The notes below the pieces were generated by a model that was not told the DNA's origin, searched no databases, and saw nothing but the letters and a program-made list of their open reading frames with translations. A DNA stretch of 64,000 nt, taken from assembly GCF_916619195.1 (NCBI RefSeq), contig NZ_CAKAKL010000001.1, positions 744,001-808,000 of the forward strand, written 5' to 3'. Origin of the DNA: Inquilinus sp. Marseille-Q2685 (lineage in GTDB: Bacteria > Pseudomonadota > Alphaproteobacteria > DSM-16000 > Inquilinaceae). Position numbers and translations under genes: made by a program. Each line of letters starts with the position of its first letter. Within the stretch, counting starts at the first letter, position 1. Of the stretch, positions 2,182 to 13,288 are shown in pieces.

Positions 2182-4942
<2,761 letters not shown>

Positions 4943-5126: not shown

Positions 5127-5417
5127 TCAGAACACCAGCGGCCCTTCCAGGTCGAGCGTCGGCTTCGCGCCGACATGCTCCACCCGCCGATGGCCTTCTG
5201 CGCCCAATCGATAGAAGCGGAGGCTGTCCGCCGCCGGGTCGATCTCGCCGATCAGCCTGGCCTTGAGCGCAGTCCACTGCGCCGGGTCCACCTCGCATTC
5301 GAACACCGAGTTCTGGACCCGCTGGCCATAATCGAGGCACGCCCGCGCCACCCGCCGCAGGCGCCTTCGGCCGGCGCTCGTCGCCGTGCTCACGTCATAG
5401 GTGATCAGCATCAGCAC
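5127..5417 (-). CDS. cas2: CRISPR-associated endoribonuclease Cas2
   Basis: 96 residues, normal for Cas2. The N-terminus MLMLITYDVSTATSAGRRRL is the hallmark first beta-strand with the conserved Asp, followed by the RRVARACLDYGQRVQNSVFE helix-strand unit of the ferredoxin-like fold. Cas2 forms the central dimer of the Cas1-Cas2 integrase that inserts new spacers at the leader. It starts 3 bases after the cas1 stop codon and is the last gene of the cas operon, directly facing the leader. Confidence 0.95.
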   Translation of the reverse strand: MLMLITYDVSTATSAGRRRLRRVARACLDYGQRVQNSVFECEVDPAQWTALKARLIGEIDPAADSLRFYRLGAEGHRRVEHVGAKPTLDLEGPLVF

Positions 5418-6470: not shown

Positions 6471-7130
6471 TCACCCGCCGATCTGCGCCGCGAGCCAGCG
6501 CCGGACCGAGGGCGCCTTCTCCAGCCGCGCCGGCTGGCACAGCGTCAGCAGCGAACAGCGTTTGCAGGCCGGGGTGCGGACGGGCGGCGGCGTCCTCATC
6601 GCGGCGATCATCGCCCGCGTCTCGGCGGCGACCCGCGCCGTGAGGGCGCGAAGCTCTCCGTCGAAGGCCACGGGGTGCCGCCGGCGCGTCTCGCCGTAGA
6701 ACAGCGCCCCTTCGGGAACGGCGGTGCCGAACATCTCCTCGAGGCAGATCGCCTGGGCGCAGAGCTGCACCTCGTCGGCCCGGTGCGCCTTCGGCCGGCC
6801 GCGCTTGTATTCGACCGGGAACGGCTGGCCGCGCCCGGCCGCGCCGGCGTCGCTGAACTCCACCACATCCGCCCGGCCGGCAACGCCGAGCGCCAGGGAC
6901 CGCACGGCCAGCCCGCGCGCCACCCGCACGCCCGGCCGCGTCTCCGGCCGGGCGGCGTCCGCCTTCGCGTGCAGCAATTGGCCTTCCGCGGTCGCCGCGT
7001 CCTCGGCCCACAGCTGCTCGACATGGATCAGCGCGCATTGCCGCGGGCAGAACAGATGGTGCTGCAGCGCCGACAGCGGGATCAGCGCATCCTCGACCTC
7101 CCGATCCAGGATGGGCGGGGCCGGCGGCAT
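6471..7130 (-). CDS. cas4: Cas4 exonuclease, RecB-like with iron-sulfur cluster
   Basis: 219 residues. One N-terminal cysteine motif (HLFCPRQC, around residues 25-32) and the C-terminal set in ACKRCSLLTLCQP match the four-cysteine Fe-S ligands of Cas4. The RecB nuclease core shows GRADVVEF, VEYKRG and a QLCAQA helix. Cas4 trims prespacers and helps choose PAM-flanked spacers with Cas1-Cas2. It lies between cas7 and cas1, the standard I-C order. Confidence 0.93.
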   Translation of the reverse strand: MPPAPPILDREVEDALIPLSALQHHLFCPRQCALIHVEQLWAEDAATAEGQLLHAKADAARPETRPGVRVARGLAVRSLALGVAGRADVVEFSDAGAAGRGQPFPVEYKRGRPKAHRADEVQLCAQAICLEEMFGTAVPEGALFYGETRRRHPVAFDGELRALTARVAAETRAMIAAMRTPPPVRTPACKRCSLLTLCQPARLEKAPSVRRWLAAQIGG

Positions 7131-7133
7131 GCC

Positions 7134-8078
7134 TCAGTGCTCGATGATCTCGATCCCGTCCGGCAGGCCGTCCCTGTCGATCGTGATCTCGTAATCGTCG
7201 AAACCGCGGGCCGGCGGCGCGTTGTCCAGCCGGTCGTCGCCAGGGCTGTGCCGTTCGCCCTTGAAGCGCCGCCAGGTCTTCACCCGGGCGAACAGGTCCT
7301 GCGCCCGGGCGTTGCCCAGCGCCGAGGCGTGGCGGAACACCACCAGCCGGCGCGTCGCCATCTCGCCGCGCGCGGCCGAACGGTCGTGCTCGAACATGTT
7401 GGTCAGCGCCTCGAACAGCAGGCCGAGATCGGCGTCGGAGAAGCCGGTGCCCTTGACCGGATGCGAGGCCAGCGGCGCCGAAACGAAGCCGTGGGCGCGG
7501 TACAGGCCGTAGGGCACGATATGCTTGCGGCCCATGGTGCGGCCGCCCTTGGCCTCCGCGTCGGCCTCCGTGGTCGCGGCGAGGCGGGTGATCGAAATCT
7601 CGAGTGGCAGGATCGGCTCCACCGAGCGGGCGAAGGCCAGTTGCACCGGCCCGCGCACCTGGCCGGCATTGACGCTGGTGCCCATCACCGCACCGAAGGC
7701 GCGGATGTCCCAGAAATTGGCGCACATCCAGCGGGTCAGCTCGCGCGCCTTGGCCTCGTCCTTCGGCAGCTTCTTGAGCTCATCGGCCTTGGTGACATCG
7801 GGCAGCACCGCGGCCCAGGCGCGCTTGTGCTCGTTGTTCAGCGTCGCCCCGTCGCGCATGTAGATCTCGTGGCCCGGCGCCTCCGGCCGCGCCATGGCGA
7901 CGTAGTTCCGCACCTTGCGCTTCAGCGCCACGTCCGACACCAGGCCCTGATTGGTCTCCGGATCCAGTCGCGGCAGGTTGCCGGCGTCGGGGTCGCCGTT
8001 CGGGTTGCCGTTGGCGACGTCGAAATACAGCACGAATTCGTGCCGCCGCGCCAAGCCCGCCCCATTATTCGTCGTCAC
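7134..8078 (-). CDS. cas7: Cas7 (Csd2), type I-C Cascade backbone
   Basis: 314 residues from GTG. The conserved start HEFVLYFDVANGNPNGDPDAGN is the Cas7c/Csd2 signature, and NFWDIRAFGAVMG and VRGPVQLAFARS follow as expected. Cas7 polymerises along the crRNA and forms the Cascade backbone. I choose GTG at 8078 because GGGGAGGAG lies about seven bases upstream; an ATG at 8096 would add six residues but lies within this Shine-Dalgarno region. The start overlaps the end of cas8c, suggesting translational coupling. Confidence 0.95.
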   Translation of the reverse strand: MTTNNGAGLARRHEFVLYFDVANGNPNGDPDAGNLPRLDPETNQGLVSDVALKRKVRNYVAMARPEAPGHEIYMRDGATLNNEHKRAWAAVLPDVTKADELKKLPKDEAKARELTRWMCANFWDIRAFGAVMGTSVNAGQVRGPVQLAFARSVEPILPLEISITRLAATTEADAEAKGGRTMGRKHIVPYGLYRAHGFVSAPLASHPVKGTGFSDADLGLLFEALTNMFEHDRSAARGEMATRRLVVFRHASALGNARAQDLFARVKTWRRFKGERHSPGDDRLDNAPPARGFDDYEITIDRDGLPDGIEIIEH

Positions 8079-9873
8079 CGCCGGTCTCCTCCCCATCCAT
8101 GCTGTCGATTTCGGCCTGGGCTTCGCGGCTGGCGAACTGGCCCCGGCGCTGGTGGTAATAGCCCAGCACGAAGCGCCCCTGCGCCTCGAGCTTCAGCGAC
8201 CGCGGCAGTGCCGGAGGCAGCTTGGCGTGGATCTCCTCGATCTCGCGCTCCAGCCAGCCGCCCTTGCCGCTCTTGCGCAGCTTGCCCAGGTGGTTCTGGG
8301 CGCCGCGCATCAGCAGCGGGAAGACGCTCCCGGGCGTCGCCGAGGCCGCGCCGAAATAGCGGTCGCGGATGGTCGCGTTCACCCGGCCCAGCGCCATGCG
8401 CTGCGCCGTCTCCACCGCCGCGAACAGGCGGCCGAGCTGATAGGCGGGATGCGGATTATCCCTGTCGAGGCCCACGGGCAGTCCCTCCCTGGAAAGATCG
8501 GCGGGGTCGGAAATGGGGGCGCCGCTCAGGCGGCGGTCGCGCAGCAGCACCGCCCGGATCGCGGCGGCGTGCCAGCCGGCGCCCGGGTCGTCGCCGGCGC
8601 GCAGGCGTATGACCGCGGCCGACAGCAGCGTGCGCGGATAGCGCGTGCCCGCCAGTACGGCGCGCGCCATCTCGCCGGCCAGCAGCGGCGGCACGTTCTC
8701 CGCCTTCTCCTGCGGCGCCGTGCATTTGACCAGCAGCCACGCGATCGAGGGCGGCCGGCGCCAGGGCAGCGGCTCGATGGTCAGGTCGCGATGATGCTCC
8801 GCCAGCCGCCGGGCGAATTCGCCGAGATCGCCGGTCAGCCAGTAGCGGATGGACAGGCGCGCCGCGTTGGGGGCGAGACCGAGGACGTGAAACCTCGTGT
8901 GCTCGTCCAGCCCGGCGTCGAGCGCCGCAAGCGGCCGCCCGGACGCGACCTGGTCGAGCTGGTCGCGCAGCTTCGCCGCCTCGCTCTCGTCGTCCGGCGG
9001 TTCGATGCTGGCGGCAAAGAAGTCCTCGGCAGCCTGCGCCGCAGCCTCGCCGACCCCGGCCGTGTCGGCCCAGAACACCACCGTCGCGTCGCCGATGCCG
9101 CGCTTCAGGCGGTTGCGGCCGGACCGGTCGAGCAGGCCGTTGAGCGCCGCGCCGTACCGGAACGCCGCCGCCTCCGAGGTCGGCGCGTTGTCGCCCTGCT
9201 CCTTCCCGTAGGAGGTGAAGGCGTCGAGGTTGAAGGAGACGAGCGCGGCGCCCGAGGACTGCGCGCCGACGACGCCCTTGACGGTGGGGTGAAGCCTCGC
9301 CACCGGAGCCTCCTGTCCGGTGACCAGACAGAAGGCGCGCTTGCCCTCACCCCCGGCACGGCGGGCCAGCAGGGCACGGGCGGCCTCGCGCTCGTGCAGG
9401 AAACGCTGCTCGCCGTCCAGCCGGAAGACGATGTTGGCGTCCAGCATCTCCGGGTGGAACGGCGGGGCGTCGAAGCGCTCGGGCGTCCAGCCTTCCAGGA
9501 ACCGCTGCAGCGCCACCAGGCCCGGATCGTTGCTGCCCGCCAGCATCTTCAGATGCATCGTCTTGAACGCCGCATGCTCCTGCGCCGTGCGCCCGCCCTC
9601 GCCTGCCGTGCGGCCGAGCAGATAGGCGCTCTTGTCCCAGAAGGCGTTCGGCAGGATCGCGACCGTCCGCTTGACCGCCGCGGGGACGGAGAGCAGTCGC
9701 GGCACCAGCTTCTTGCCGCTCGCGCTCCGCAGGTCGACCACATCGACCGGCTCGCCCTCTTCCGACAGCGTGATGGCGAAGCCGATCTTCTCGCGCGAGA
9801 AGCCGGGCTGCTCGGCCTCTCCCCGCTCGGCCATGCGCTCGTAATAGCGGTCGAGCGCCTGCAGGACGGTCAC
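8065..9873 (-). CDS. cas8c: Cas8c (Csd1), type I-C Cascade large subunit
   Basis: 602 residues, the usual Cas8c length. The sequence starts VTVLQALDRYYERMAERGEA and contains KRAFCLVTGQEAPVARLHP, VSFNLDAFTSYGKEQGDNAP and ATVVFWAD, all Csd1-type landmarks. Cas8c recognises the PAM (TTC in studied I-C systems), and in I-C an internal start supplies the small subunit Cas11c. The GTG start forms a 4-base GTGA overlap with the cas5 stop, so the genes are translationally coupled. The acidic C-terminus (DSMDGEETGGDDE) is unusual but intact. Confidence 0.95.
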   Translation of the reverse strand: MTVLQALDRYYERMAERGEAEQPGFSREKIGFAITLSEEGEPVDVVDLRSASGKKLVPRLLSVPAAVKRTVAILPNAFWDKSAYLLGRTAGEGGRTAQEHAAFKTMHLKMLAGSNDPGLVALQRFLEGWTPERFDAPPFHPEMLDANIVFRLDGEQRFLHEREAARALLARRAGGEGKRAFCLVTGQEAPVARLHPTVKGVVGAQSSGAALVSFNLDAFTSYGKEQGDNAPTSEAAAFRYGAALNGLLDRSGRNRLKRGIGDATVVFWADTAGVGEAAAQAAEDFFAASIEPPDDESEAAKLRDQLDQVASGRPLAALDAGLDEHTRFHVLGLAPNAARLSIRYWLTGDLGEFARRLAEHHRDLTIEPLPWRRPPSIAWLLVKCTAPQEKAENVPPLLAGEMARAVLAGTRYPRTLLSAAVIRLRAGDDPGAGWHAAAIRAVLLRDRRLSGAPISDPADLSREGLPVGLDRDNPHPAYQLGRLFAAVETAQRMALGRVNATIRDRYFGAASATPGSVFPLLMRGAQNHLGKLRKSGKGGWLEREIEEIHAKLPPALPRSLKLEAQGRFVLGYYHQRRGQFASREAQAEIDSMDGEETGGDDE

Positions 9874-10547
9874 GACACCAGGCCCTCGGCCAGGCAGCGC
9901 CGCACGTCGAGCACGCCGTCCGTCAGCCGGGCATGGAAGAAGCGCGAGGCGTGGTCGTTGGCGAAGTCGATGTCGTGCAGCATCCAGCCCAGGTCGCGGT
10001 TCCTTTGCTCCTCGGGCAGGGCGCCGGCGGGCAGCGGCGCGCCCTCCGGGACCAGCTCGAAATCGGCCGCGAACTCCCGCGTGCCGAGGCAGGGCCGGTG
10101 GAAGCACTGGCCGGACGCCGCGCGCCGGTTGAACATGCTGATGTGCTTGGCGTCGGTGTCCTCGGGTCCGGCCTTCGCCGTCTGCTCGAAATGCGCCTCG
10201 ATGACGTAGTCGACATCGACCAGCAGCGTCGTCGCGCGCTGCTGCCGGTGATCCTCGACGACGAGGCCCAGCCCGGCGCCGGTACCCCCGCGCATGGCGC
10301 GCTCGGCGGTCGCGGCGCTGGCCTTGGCGCCGACCTCGTTGCGCCGGAAGGACTGGAAGCGGATCGGCTTCAGCACATGGATCCGGTCGACCACCCAGCG
10401 GATCGCCGGCTTCCAGTGGACCGCCTCCAGGATGCCGCGGGCGGCCGACGGCGTCATCACGTCGTAGGAGACGCGCTCGACCTTCATTTCCGGGCGGGTG
10501 AAGCACGCGCGCTCACCCCAGACGCGCAGCCTGATGCCGTAACTCAT
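9870..10547 (-). CDS. cas5: Cas5c (Cas5d), crRNA-processing endoribonuclease of type I-C
   Basis: 225 residues. MSYGIRLRVWGERACFTRPE and VERVSYDVMTPSAARGILEA are the family signatures. In type I-C there is no Cas6; Cas5c cuts the repeat hairpin and stays on the crRNA 5' handle. The ATG at 10547 is used because AGGGAG sits about 5 bases before it; a TTG at 10559 lies upstream of this site. It is the first gene of the effector part of the operon and is preceded by the unusual 437-bp gap after cas3. Confidence 0.95.
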   Translation of the reverse strand: MSYGIRLRVWGERACFTRPEMKVERVSYDVMTPSAARGILEAVHWKPAIRWVVDRIHVLKPIRFQSFRRNEVGAKASAATAERAMRGGTGAGLGLVVEDHRQQRATTLLVDVDYVIEAHFEQTAKAGPEDTDAKHISMFNRRAASGQCFHRPCLGTREFAADFELVPEGAPLPAGALPEEQRNRDLGWMLHDIDFANDHASRFFHARLTDGVLDVRRCLAEGLVS

Positions 10548-10662
10548 GGGCTCCCTCAATAACGGCCGGGAGGCGGATTGAAATCACTTGGCAGGAATGT
10601 GCAGCTATAATCCGAACCTGAACGGCTCGATATGAGCACATCTTCGTAGCTCGGACAATAGG

Positions 10663-10687
10663 GCCCCCGGCGAGCACCGGGGGCAAG
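10663..10687 (-). repeat. Second pseudo-repeat of a mini-CRISPR (GCCCCCGG hairpin)
   Basis: Read on the minus strand this begins CTTGCCCCC, close to the GTCGCCCCC that opens the array repeat. It forms a perfect 8-bp hairpin, GCCCCCGG / CCGGGGGC, with a 6-base loop (10663-10670 with 10677-10684). It lies 22-25 bases after the first pseudo-repeat, where the next repeat of a CRISPR unit would be. After the stem it does not continue with GTGGATCGAAAC, so only the 5' half is preserved. That half is all a mature crRNA 3' end needs. It might also act as a weak terminator. Confidence 0.6.
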
Positions 10688-10709
10688 TCGCATCCCAACG
10701 CGCTTCAGT
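10685..10709 (-). ncRNA. Pseudo-spacer of the mini-CRISPR, candidate CreA/CreR guide
   Basis: Minus-strand sequence directly after the pseudo-repeat handle starts ACTGAAGCGCGTTGGGATGC. It is shorter than the array's spacers (22-25 versus 32-40). It matches a site upstream in the same gap: positions 1-5, 7-11, 13-14 and 16-17 agree with the minus strand from 10928 downward, and the site has TTC immediately 5'. This partial match, enough for binding but not for cleavage, is what is known for CreA and CreR guides that make Cascade act as a repressor. That it is expressed and processed by Cas5c is inference. Confidence 0.65.
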
Positions 10710-10747
10710 GTTTCGATCCGCACTCGATGTTCTAGTTATCGAGTGAC
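10710..10747 (-). repeat. Pseudo-repeat with intact crRNA handle and a novel 8-bp stem
   Basis: On the plus strand it starts GTTTCGATCC, identical to the array repeat over all ten handle bases, and ends GAC like the repeat. Between them the stem is CACTCGAT / ATCGAGTG (8 bp, perfect) with a 9-base loop, replacing GCCCCC / GGGGGC. Its length is 38 rather than 32. The conserved handle and a swapped but fully paired stem suggest selection for Cas5c processing and Cascade binding without recombination with the array. Confidence 0.75.
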
Positions 10748-10831
10748 TGTCGGATACCGAATCTCTATGCCAATTTTGATTGTAAATCCATGAATACTGA
10801 TACACAGCGTGATGGATTTACGGCTCCCCAT
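10736..10831 (-). CDS. Small 31-codon ORF with strong Shine-Dalgarno, candidate CreT-like toxin
   Basis: Minus-strand ATG at 10831 with GGAGGT eight bases upstream (10845-10840), a better ribosome site than most genes here. The peptide begins MGSRKSITLCISIHGF and continues TIKIGIEIRYPTVTR. Its codons are AT-rich and unlike the neighbourhood (AAA, AGT, TTT, ACA, ATA, ATT). The stop TAA lies inside the pseudo-repeat, so the last four codons are shared with it. No homology is recognised. Position between a guide-matched site and its guide suggests a toxin kept silent by Cascade, either through the peptide or through rare-codon tRNA titration. Neither is shown. Confidence 0.45.
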   Translation of the reverse strand: MGSRKSITLCISIHGFTIKIGIEIRYPTVTR

Positions 10832-10906
10832 GACTTCTTACCTCCAGCCAGGAGAATGCCAAAATTAGAACACGCCCATCAATTACCTCTTTAGCGGTAC
10901 GCTAGT

Positions 10907-10931
10907 CGCGCTCTCATCGCGCGTCAGTGAA
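10907..10931 (-). promoter_or_regulatory. PAM-flanked target site of the mini-CRISPR guide, over a possible promoter
   Basis: The minus strand reads TTC (10931-10929), the I-C PAM, then ACTGACGCGCGATGAGAG. Against the pseudo-spacer the mismatches within the first 17 bases are at 6, 12 and 15; 6 and 12 are bases flipped out in Cascade-DNA hybrids. A possible sigma70 promoter, CTGACG (10927-10922), 17 bp, TAGCGT (10904-10899), lies across the same site, so an R-loop here would block it. The promoter match is modest and is inference. Confidence 0.6.
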
Positions 10932-10984
10932 ACTCAATAACGGTCGACCTGAAGATCATCTTTGTGCGTCAACAACGCCCGGCC

Positions 10985-13288
10985 TCAAAACACATTCCAC
11001 TCGGCGTCGCGATAGGTCGGTTCCTCCAGGTCCACGCCGGTGTCCGGCCGGTAATGGGCCAGATCCACGAATCGCAGCATCGCCCCACCCAGGGCCGGAT
11101 GAACCTGTGTCAGCACGCCTCGCGCCAGCCAGTCCTTCCATTTGTCCCTGGGGATCGGCACGGCGTATTGCTGCAGCCGCCGCAGGTCCCGGCCGGAGGG
11201 CTTCGGCTGCGCGGCGGCGATCCGGGCCAGCAGTTCATCCGCCTCCCGGTCGGCGTCATCCGCGCGCCAGGGCACGATCGCCGGCTCCATCACCTCGTCG
11301 ATCAGGCGGAAGGCCTGCGCGATCGAGGCGAAGGGGAAGGCCCAATCAGCGGCCCGCTCGCGGATCGCCGCGAGGACGCCGGGGATGCCGCCGACCTTCG
11401 CCGCGTCCAGCGCCGCCTCGCTCTTCCGCCAGTAGAGCTCGCCGAAGAAGTCGCGCACGGCGTCGAGCCCCAGCGGGTCGGCATGCTTCGCCAGGGCCGG
11501 CTGCGCCGCCTGCCAGCGGACCTTCAGATCATGCGGCGCCGTCGCCTCGGCCGGCTCGAACACCACGACCCGCCCGAGCCGCGGCCGGCCCTCGCCGTCC
11601 GTCAGCACGCCCTCGCGGTTGCAGCGGCCCGCGGCCTGGGCGATCGAATCGATGCCGGCGGCGGCGCGCCAGACCTCGGGGAAGTCGATATCGACCCCGG
11701 CCTCGATCAGCGAGGTCGCCACCAGCCGCACCGGCTGTCCCTGGCGCAGCCGGTCGCGCAGGCCGGCCAGCACCTGCCGGCGGTGGCGCGGGCACATCAG
11801 GGTGGAGAGATGCACCGCGCCCGGCAGGTCGCGGATGGCCGCGAACAGAAGCTGCGCATGCTGGCGCCGGTTGACGATGCACAGCATCTGCGGCTGCTCG
11901 GCGAAGCGGTCTGCGATCACGGCGTCGGCGACCGGTTCCGATATCCGCTCGACGGCAACGCGCTTCAGCCTGCGGTAGAGATCCTGCGGATCGGGGGCCA
12001 GCTCGCGCGTGTCGTCGATGGCGAAGCCGCCCTTCTCGAATCCGTCCTTCACCCGCAGCGCCGGCTGGGTCGCGGTGCACAGCACGATGCTTGCCCCGTA
12101 GTGCCGCGCCAGCTCGTCGATCGCCGCCATGCAGGGCCGCAGCAGTTGCATCGGCATGGTCTGCGCCTCGTCCAGGACGACGACGCTGCCGGCGATGTTG
12201 TGCAGCTTGCGGCAGCGCGACGGGCGGTCGGCGAACAGGCTCTCGAAGAACTGCACCGCGGTGGTGACGACGATCGGGACGTCCCAGTTTTCCGCCGCCC
12301 ACTGCAGCTTGGAGACGGCGTCCGGCGCCTCGTCGTCGGCGCGGGGCGTCCGCCGCGCCCGCTCCCAGTCGAAGCTGGCATGGTGCTCCAGGATGTCGTC
12401 CTGGCTGCCCAGCGCCCGGCGGAACACCTCCGCCGTCTGCTCGATGATCGAGGTGTAGGGGATGACGTAGACGACGCGGCGCAGCCCGTGGCGGACCGCA
12501 TGCTCCAGCGCGAAGGAGAGCGAAGCCAGCGTCTTGCCGCCCCCGGTCGGGACGGTCAGGGTGAACAGGCCCGGCGTCAGTTCGGCTTTCCTGATCGTAT
12601 GATCGAGGATGGCCGCGCGCAGGACGTTGAGCGGCGTCGGCTCGGCTTCCGCGCGCTTCTCCGCCATATGGGCGCGCAGCCGGTCGCGCAGCACGGCGAG
12701 ACCCGTATGGCCGCCGCGCTCGACCGGTACGCCTTCCGCCTCGGCGTAGAAACGTTCGGTCGCCAGGAAGTCGGCGTCGACCAGGCACGAGAACAGCATC
12801 CGCACCAGGAAGCTGGCGGCAAAGCCCTTCCGCCCCACGCGCAGGTCGAAGGGCCGCGCCGGCCCTAGCGCCGGCTGGGGCGGCAGCGGCCCGACCTGCG
12901 CCCGCCATCCGGCGGGGACCAGGCCTCCGGCCCCTTCCAGCCGGCGGGCCAGGTCGACGCCGTCGGCGAGGCCGGCGTGATGCGCCGCGATGATGGCGGC
13001 GAGCATCGTCCCGAGCGGGGAGTTATAGGCGTCGAGCGCGATCCGCGCCCCGGCCGAGGAATGATCGCCGCCCGACTCCCTTTGCCCGGCGATATAGGCC
13101 TGGAACGCGGCGGAGAGCTTGCCGATGTCGTGCAGGCGGCCGGCGAGGCGGGCAGCCTCCGCCCAGCCGAACACTGCGGCGAACTCGGCCGCCAGGGCCG
13201 CGACCGCCTCCTGGTGATCCGACAGGCTTTCCCAGCGGTCCATCGCTGCGCCGGGAAGGGAATGCGCGTAGATGATGCCGTCCGCCAT
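10985..13288 (-). CDS. cas3: Cas3 helicase-nuclease, type I-C
   Basis: 767 residues. The HD nuclease domain is N-terminal: RLHDIGK (His53-Asp54), GGDHSSAGA, AAHHAG (about 101-106) and CLVDADFLATE. The SF2 helicase follows: VPTGGGKT (about 246-253), VVLDEAQTMP (Asp373-Glu374), LCTATQPAL, then LVATSLIEAGVDIDFPEVWR and QAAGRCNREG. Cas3 is recruited by Cascade and degrades the target strand. MADGIIYAHS at 13288 is taken as the start because alignable sequence begins there. It is the first cas gene and faces away from the following cas5 block across the long gap. Confidence 0.95.
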   Translation of the reverse strand: MADGIIYAHSLPGAAMDRWESLSDHQEAVAALAAEFAAVFGWAEAARLAGRLHDIGKLSAAFQAYIAGQRESGGDHSSAGARIALDAYNSPLGTMLAAIIAAHHAGLADGVDLARRLEGAGGLVPAGWRAQVGPLPPQPALGPARPFDLRVGRKGFAASFLVRMLFSCLVDADFLATERFYAEAEGVPVERGGHTGLAVLRDRLRAHMAEKRAEAEPTPLNVLRAAILDHTIRKAELTPGLFTLTVPTGGGKTLASLSFALEHAVRHGLRRVVYVIPYTSIIEQTAEVFRRALGSQDDILEHHASFDWERARRTPRADDEAPDAVSKLQWAAENWDVPIVVTTAVQFFESLFADRPSRCRKLHNIAGSVVVLDEAQTMPMQLLRPCMAAIDELARHYGASIVLCTATQPALRVKDGFEKGGFAIDDTRELAPDPQDLYRRLKRVAVERISEPVADAVIADRFAEQPQMLCIVNRRQHAQLLFAAIRDLPGAVHLSTLMCPRHRRQVLAGLRDRLRQGQPVRLVATSLIEAGVDIDFPEVWRAAAGIDSIAQAAGRCNREGVLTDGEGRPRLGRVVVFEPAEATAPHDLKVRWQAAQPALAKHADPLGLDAVRDFFGELYWRKSEAALDAAKVGGIPGVLAAIRERAADWAFPFASIAQAFRLIDEVMEPAIVPWRADDADREADELLARIAAAQPKPSGRDLRRLQQYAVPIPRDKWKDWLARGVLTQVHPALGGAMLRFVDLAHYRPDTGVDLEEPTYRDAEWNVF

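What the first reader, a model, noticed from the sequence alone, without database searches (positions are those of the whole stretch)
10907..10931. TTC-flanked partial protospacer with mismatches at positions 6 and 12
The site matches the pseudo-spacer at 1-5, 7-11, 13-14 and 16-17. Mismatches are at 6, 12, 15 and 18 onward. Cascade flips out every sixth base, so 6 and 12 are neutral, and the 5' base triplet is the I-C PAM. The fixed part (TTC plus ten seed bases) is very unlikely by chance in a 437-bp gap. The unmatched distal half should prevent Cas3 cleavage but allow binding. The site overlaps a possible promoter (CTGACG, 17 bp, TAGCGT).
Basis: partly seen in the sequence, partly recalled or inferred. 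Interest (0 to 1): 0.9.

Follow-up and report, generated by a model that had tools for sequence, protein, structure and literature searches.

The report
CRISPR-guarded toxin switch, type I-C
Hidden between two CRISPR genes is what looks like a self-guarding switch: a stray CRISPR-style guide RNA steers the bacterium's own CRISPR complex to silence a tiny toxin gene, so a cell that loses CRISPR would be poisoned.

Summary
On the minus strand, TTC (10931-10929) is followed by a site matching the pseudo-spacer at 1-5, 7-11, 13-14 and 16-17. The PAM plus seed occurs once in the 7.29-Mb genome and in 1 of 20,000 shuffled gaps.

The site is one part of a module in the cas3-cas5c gap: target; a 31-codon ORF with a GGAGG ribosome site; a degenerate repeat with a rewritten but intact stem; a pseudo-spacer; a GC hairpin. 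About 20 other type I-C loci carry the same layout with unrelated guides, each matching a TTC-flanked site just after cas3. Own-gap matches of 11/14 or more occur for 21 of 31 guides, against 8 of 930 swapped gaps. Mismatches fall at 6, 12 and 18, and pairing ends near 17. This is Cascade-type recognition for binding without cutting.

Best reading: a type I-C CreTA module. CreA, presumably cut by Cas5c, directs Cascade to repress creT, which probably encodes a peptide toxin (a beta-hairpin here, membrane peptides in most relatives). CreTA is known in I-B, and a peptide-type CreT in I-E (Citrobacter rodentium). No held paper describes I-C CreTA. Toxicity and repression are inferred, not shown. 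The main rival is cas autoregulation (CreR), which Tistrella's ORF-less version resembles.

The parts
10907..10931 (-). target (operator): TTC PAM 10931-10929 plus protospacer read 10928 to 10907
   Evidence: sequence; unique in the genome; 1 of 20,000 shuffles; equivalent site in about 20 relatives
10899..10927 (-). possible creT promoter, CTGACG (10927-10922) 17 bp TAGCGT (10904-10899)
   Evidence: weak consensus match; not found by the promoter scan; among the two top candidates. In most relatives the target abuts or overlaps a better -35
10840..10845 (-). Shine-Dalgarno GGAGGT of the small ORF
   Evidence: sequence
10736..10831 (-). creT candidate: 31-aa ORF MGSRKSITLCISIHGFTIKIGIEIRYPTVTR, stop codon inside the degenerate repeat
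   Evidence: counterparts in Inquilinus limosus (L002) and Xanthobacter (L003), 39% and 32% identity; beta-hairpin model, mean pLDDT 83
10710..10747 (-). degenerate (ectopic) I-C repeat psiR1: 8-bp stem with rewritten sequence, then 11 nt to the spacer
   Evidence: stem CACTCGAT/ATCGAGTG against CGCCCCC/GGGGGCG in the array repeat; end GCGGATCGAAAC against GTGGATCGAAAC
10685..10709 (-). creA guide (pseudo-spacer), about 25 nt up to the next hairpin
10663..10684 (-). 9-bp GC hairpin: second degenerate repeat or terminator (no T run)
   Evidence: conserved in L002
10985..13324 (-). cas3
   Evidence: TIGR01596 (HD) above its cut-off; TIGR01587 core just below
9870..10547 (-). cas5c, probable processing nuclease of array and creA repeats
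   Evidence: TIGR01876 168.8 bits against cut-off 85; intact frame, ATG at 10547
8065..9864 (-). cas8c (start approximate)
   Evidence: TIGR01863 E 7e-163
7134..8096 (-). cas7c
   Evidence: TIGR02589 E 7e-103
6471..7130 (-). cas4
   Evidence: TIGR00372
5421..6461 (-). cas1c
   Evidence: TIGR03640 E 3e-146
5127..5411 (-). cas2
   Evidence: open frame MLITYDVST... next to cas1; assigned by position and motif, no profile run
2188..4942 (-). CRISPR array, repeat GTCGCCCCCCATGCGGGGGCGTGGATCGAAAC, spacers mostly 33-37 nt; repeats decay towards 2188

Best explanation
The site is the operator of a type I-C CreTA module, a CRISPR-regulated toxin-antitoxin pair, set between cas3 and cas5c. The degenerate repeat plus pseudo-spacer is transcribed as a crRNA-like antitoxin RNA (CreA), which Cas5c would trim, because I-C has no Cas6. 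Loaded into the Cas5c-Cas8c-Cas7 complex, CreA pairs with the TTC-flanked site through guide positions 1-17, skipping 6 and 12. That is enough to bind but too short to license Cas3 cutting, so the bound complex blocks transcription of the small ORF at 10831-10736 (creT). If Cascade is lost, blocked or titrated, creT is expressed and its 31-residue beta-hairpin peptide arrests growth. Shown: the match, its uniqueness, the intact cas operon, the repeat anatomy, and the conserved guide-target coupling with 6-nt mismatch spacing in about 20 loci. Inferred: transcription, Cas5c processing, repression, toxicity, and that the peptide rather than the RNA is toxic.
For: PAM + seed match unique in the genome. 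Guide-target coupling kept while sequences differ completely: 21 of 31 guides score at least 11/14 against their own gap, 8 of 930 against swapped gaps, some of these between same-species pairs. Matches over 20 pairs: positions 1-5 and 7-11 17-20 of 20; positions 6, 12 and 18 only 7, 5 and 5; background after 18. The pattern also holds when sites are chosen on TTC + 1-5 alone: 17 own sites against 14 in 812 swapped comparisons. The cas3-cas5c gap is bimodal, small in most loci and 180-490 bp in module-bearing ones. An SD-led ORF of 26 or more codons ending before or inside the repeat is found by the automatic rule in 11 of 15 roomy loci, about 1.7 expected from shuffles; many encode single-TM peptides. 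Same layout as published CreTA: TTC PAM and pairing at 1-5 and 7-11 in H. hubeiense (PMC8501985), and a 96-bp translated toxin ORF in the cas3-casA gap of C. rodentium I-E (PMC12055562).
Against: No expression, processing, binding or toxicity data. For this window alone the ORF is modest evidence: 10% of shuffles give one as good. Its promoter is weak and unresolved. In the nearest relative (L002) the PAM is TTT, not TTC, and its ORF has no stop where the window's has one. Tistrella loci keep guide and target but have no ORF, so coupling alone does not prove a toxin. The peptide matches no known family.
Confidence: 0.74

Rival explanations
1. CreR-type autoregulation: the guide directs Cascade to the promoter that feeds creA and the downstream cas5c-cas8c-cas7 operon. 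The site tunes Cascade dosage and the small ORF is incidental or a leader peptide.
For: cas5c lies directly downstream with no convincing promoter of its own. Tistrella loci (L083, L088, L089, L150) have target, a -35 TTGACG and guide but no room for an ORF. CreR is reported for type I and V-A systems (review PMC12737573).
Against: A GC hairpin lies between the guide and cas5c. The window and most relatives keep 140-230 bp between target and repeat, with an SD-led ORF well above chance, which autoregulation does not need. Related membrane peptides recur in distant hosts.
Confidence: 0.16
2. RNA toxin as in haloarchaea: creT acts by sequestering rare tRNAs through a strong ribosome site and rare codons, and the peptide sequence is irrelevant.
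For: The window ORF is rich in codons rare in this GC-rich genome (AGT, ATT, ACA, AAA, ATA, ACT at 0.5-1.7 per 1000) and has a strong GGAGG. Haloarchaeal CreTs work this way (PMC8501985).
Against: No run of identical rare codons at the start. The codons change in L002 and L003 while the alternating hydrophobic pattern stays. Most relatives encode transmembrane-type peptides. C. rodentium CreT loses activity on frameshift but not on in-frame insertion; that shows translation is needed, and only suggests the peptide acts.
Confidence: 0.06
3. The match is a decayed natural protospacer or a chance or duplicated sequence without function.
For: Guide and target in the window lie in the same orientation in one gap, so a short duplication could make them alike.
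Against: Shuffle and swap controls, presence in about 20 loci in three proteobacterial classes and a Desulfobulbaceae member, most in inverted orientation, and the 6-12-18 mismatch pattern, which duplication and decay would not give.
Confidence: 0.03

Closest known systems
CreTA of haloarchaeal type I-B systems (Haloarcula hispanica, Halobacterium hubeiense; PMC8501985, PMC9458426)
   Same: Located in the cas locus; one or two degenerate repeats; a pseudo-spacer pairing at 1-5 and 7-11 to a TTC-flanked site upstream of creT; promoter-creT-creA order
   Different: Subtype I-C with no Cas6, so Cas5c must process; the predicted toxin is a 28-54 aa peptide, not a four- to six-codon tRNA-sequestering RNA; the creT stop lies in or near the repeat
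CreTA of Citrobacter rodentium type I-E (PMC12055562)
   Same: Intergenic region after cas3 and before the Cascade operon; a 96-bp ORF, the same length as here, must be translated for toxicity; PAM-flanked target near the promoter
   Different: Type I-E (PAM ATG, Cas6e); creA is on the opposite strand upstream of creT there, here it is downstream on the same strand; no sequence likeness claimed
CreR cas-regulating RNAs (types I and V-A; review PMC12737573)
   Same: Ectopic-repeat guide directing the effector to a promoter inside the cas locus
   Different: CreR is generally not coupled to a toxin; here a peptide ORF sits between target and guide. The Tistrella relatives look more like CreR
CrePA (KilA-N protein toxin; review PMC12737573)
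   Same: Protein toxin repressed by a CreA-guided effector
   Different: CreP is described as typically carrying a KilA-N domain; here the product is a 31-residue peptide without family matches

Membership tests
CreTA | Ectopic, degenerate CRISPR repeat outside the array, inside the cas locus | tested here: met
   psiR1 10747-10710: 11 of 12 end bases as in the array repeat, stem rewritten but kept
CreTA | Pseudo-spacer partially complementary (seed, 6th base free) to a PAM-flanked site upstream of creT | tested here: met
   coupling conserved in relatives
CreTA | Target lies in the creT promoter | tested here: inconclusive
   Weak promoter in the window; clear -35 next to the target in relatives such as L026, L047, L083, L088
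CreTA | Small toxin gene between target and guide with strong ribosome site | tested here: met
   31-codon ORF, GGAGG; enriched over shuffles in the family. The gene is present; its toxicity is a separate row
CreTA | creT is toxic when derepressed | not testable with these tools
   needs expression experiment
CreTA | Repression needs Cascade but not Cas3 | not testable with these tools
   cas genes intact; effect not measurable here
CreTA | CreA processed by the system's crRNA nuclease | not testable with these tools
   The stem end 11 nt before the spacer equals the array repeat's geometry; RNA data needed
CreR | Target in the promoter of the effector operon itself | tested here: inconclusive
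   Target is about 360 bp upstream of cas5c with an ORF and a hairpin between; read-through not measurable
CreR | No toxin gene coupled to the guide | tested here: not met
   Conserved SD-led ORF in the window group and most relatives; met only by Tistrella loci

The most novel reading that the evidence does not exclude
Type I-C systems across Proteobacteria carry a family of CRISPR-guarded peptide toxins with two-level control: Cascade blocks the creT promoter, and Cas5c, by cutting the repeat that overlaps the end of creT, also trims the toxin message (in L047 and L066 the predicted cut would remove the stop codon). The same promoter may read on into cas5c-8c-7, so that one guide both tunes Cascade supply and addicts the cell to it.
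Probability: 0.25. Interest if true: 0.8.

Novelty: new variant of a known kind. Interest (0 to 1): 0.62.

Why it matters
It would extend CRISPR addiction modules to a common subtype that lacks Cas6. It supplies about 20 guide-target pairs, which form a natural record of how much pairing Cascade needs to bind without cutting (17 nt, every sixth free). It also points to a set of unannotated peptide toxins hidden in cas3-cas5c gaps. It makes a testable prediction for Azotobacter vinelandii and other cultivable hosts: cas8c or cas7 cannot be lost unless creT goes too. Any use of anti-CRISPR proteins or of Cascade deletion in I-C hosts would have to reckon with it.

Tried and rejected
I first looked for the pseudo-spacer on the plus-strand side of the repeat; no match there, because the array and repeat read on the minus strand. 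Rfam found nothing in 10400-11100. Pfam and NCBIfam gave no family for the peptide. A profile of the three beta-type peptides found no further credible relative in 385 class genomes, best non-self E 0.009. A four-codon ORF (MGVF, SD GAGGT, just downstream of the target) was considered as a haloarchaea-style mini-CreT and rejected because L002 and L003 lack it. Of seven plasmid-borne I-C loci fetched, five gaps were scanned for the module and only Tistrella pTM3 has guide and target, the ORF-less form; the other two are annotated with gaps of 13 and 70 bp. L087 and L055 have a repeat but no convincing target and were not counted.

Full report
The observation. The window carries a complete-looking type I-C locus on the minus strand: cas3 13324-10985, cas5c 10547-9870, cas8c, cas7, cas4, cas1, cas2 5411-5127, and an array at 4942-2188 with repeat GTCGCCCCCCATGCGGGGGCGTGGATCGAAAC and spacers mostly 33-37 nt. 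Most relatives leave little room between cas3 and cas5c; here the gap is 437 bp. On the minus strand it reads, in order: TTC and the reported site (10931-10907); an ORF of 31 codons with GGAGG (10831-10736); a degenerate repeat (10747-10710); the pseudo-spacer (10709-10685); a GC hairpin (10684-10663); and cas5c. TTC plus the ten seed bases appeared in 1 of 20,000 dinucleotide shuffles of the gap and occurs once in the whole 7.29-Mb genome.

The repeat. Its last 12 bases differ from the array repeat by one base. Upstream of them the stem is kept but its sequence is rewritten (CACTCGAT/ATCGAGTG instead of CGCCCCC/GGGGGCG), and the stem ends 11 nt before the spacer, as in the array repeat. That is what one expects of an RNA still meant for the I-C processing nuclease. 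In I-C this is Cas5c; that and the TTC PAM are general knowledge of subtype I-C, not tested here.

Relatives. I collected Cas5c relatives from 80 contigs and from two wider genome samples. In 122 loci with cas3 upstream, the gap is bimodal: mostly under 150 bp, with a second group around 180-490 bp. Many of the long gaps contain a repeat ending in a GTGGATTGAAAC-like handle. The guide after it is different in almost every locus, yet a TTC-flanked match sits just downstream of cas3. Of 31 guides, 21 score 11 or more of 14 against their own gap; 8 of 930 guide-gap swaps do, some of these between same-species pairs. Summed over 20 pairs, positions 1-5 and 7-11 match in 17-20 cases, positions 6, 12 and 18 in 7, 5 and 5, and matching falls to background after 18. 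Sites were picked by a score that ignores 6, 12 and 18. I therefore repeated the count choosing sites only by TTC and positions 1-5: 17 own sites against 14 in 812 swapped comparisons, again with dips at 6, 12 and 18. I take recognition by Cascade as established at the level of sequence evidence.

What is controlled. In most relatives the target abuts or overlaps the -35 of a sigma-70-like promoter (L026: TTGACA-16-TATACT, two bases after the PAM), followed by an SD-led ORF. An automatic rule finds such an ORF in 11 of 15 roomy loci against about 1.7 expected. Several encode 27-54 aa peptides with a transmembrane segment; five are alignable across Gammaproteobacteria, Betaproteobacteria and a Desulfobulbaceae MAG. 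The window's group (Inquilinus, Xanthobacter) instead has an alternating hydrophobic pattern, predicted as a beta-hairpin (strands 4-13 and 16-25, mean pLDDT 83, three sequences). By itself the window ORF would be unremarkable (10% of shuffles). Its weight comes from the family and from L002 and L003. L002 lacks the stop and has TTT as PAM, so the nearest relative is not a clean replicate.

Mechanism. This order of operator, toxin gene, guide and hairpin is that of CreTA. In H. hubeiense I-B the guide pairs at 1-5 and 7-11 beside TTC. In C. rodentium I-E a 96-bp ORF between cas3 and casA is toxic only if translated, and Cascade but not Cas3 is needed in the mouse. I therefore read the locus as a I-C CreTA with a peptide toxin. 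Steps not shown are transcription, Cas5c processing, repression and toxicity. The main rival is CreR-type control of the cas operon. The Tistrella loci, with guide and target but no ORF, suggest that such a form exists in the same subtype, and both functions could share one promoter.

Novelty. Searches of the open literature found no description of CreTA in type I-C (no mention). The original Science 2021 report and the 2023 CreR and 2024 CrePA papers were not found in the library, and their supplementary lists may include I-C candidates; so I call this a new variant of a known kind, not a new kind.

Noticed in passing
L083, L088, L089, L150 (L089 and L150 are Tistrella mobilis pTM3 or its equal): Same guide-target layout and promoter in a 199-201 bp gap but no ORF: looks like CreR-type cas autoregulation in type I-C.
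   Followed up: partly
L031, L043, L117 and, broken, L148 (Rhizobium sp. Q54 plasmid): The cas3-cas5c gap holds a conserved ORF of about 95-115 aa (VYKIVYPNGKIYVG...) with a GIY-YIG look by eye but no Pfam match, and no ectopic repeat.
   Followed up: partly
L019, 851-bp gap: A guide and TTC target are followed by a HicA toxin gene (Pfam HicA_toxin E 1e-14), which may be a CRISPR-linked classical toxin.
   Followed up: partly
L047 (Azotobacter vinelandii CA) and L066 (Delftia tsuruhatensis): The stop codon of the predicted peptide lies in the repeat's last bases, downstream of the expected Cas5c cut, so processing would leave a toxin message without a stop.
   Followed up: no
window 2188-3000: Repeats at the far end of the array are strongly degenerate, with irregular spacing.
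   Followed up: no
window 10908-10927 and the same place in L002, L003: Inverted repeat within the target (L002 CGCGTTGGAAACGCG, L003 GCGTTGTAAACGC), possibly a site for a DNA-binding protein.
   Followed up: no
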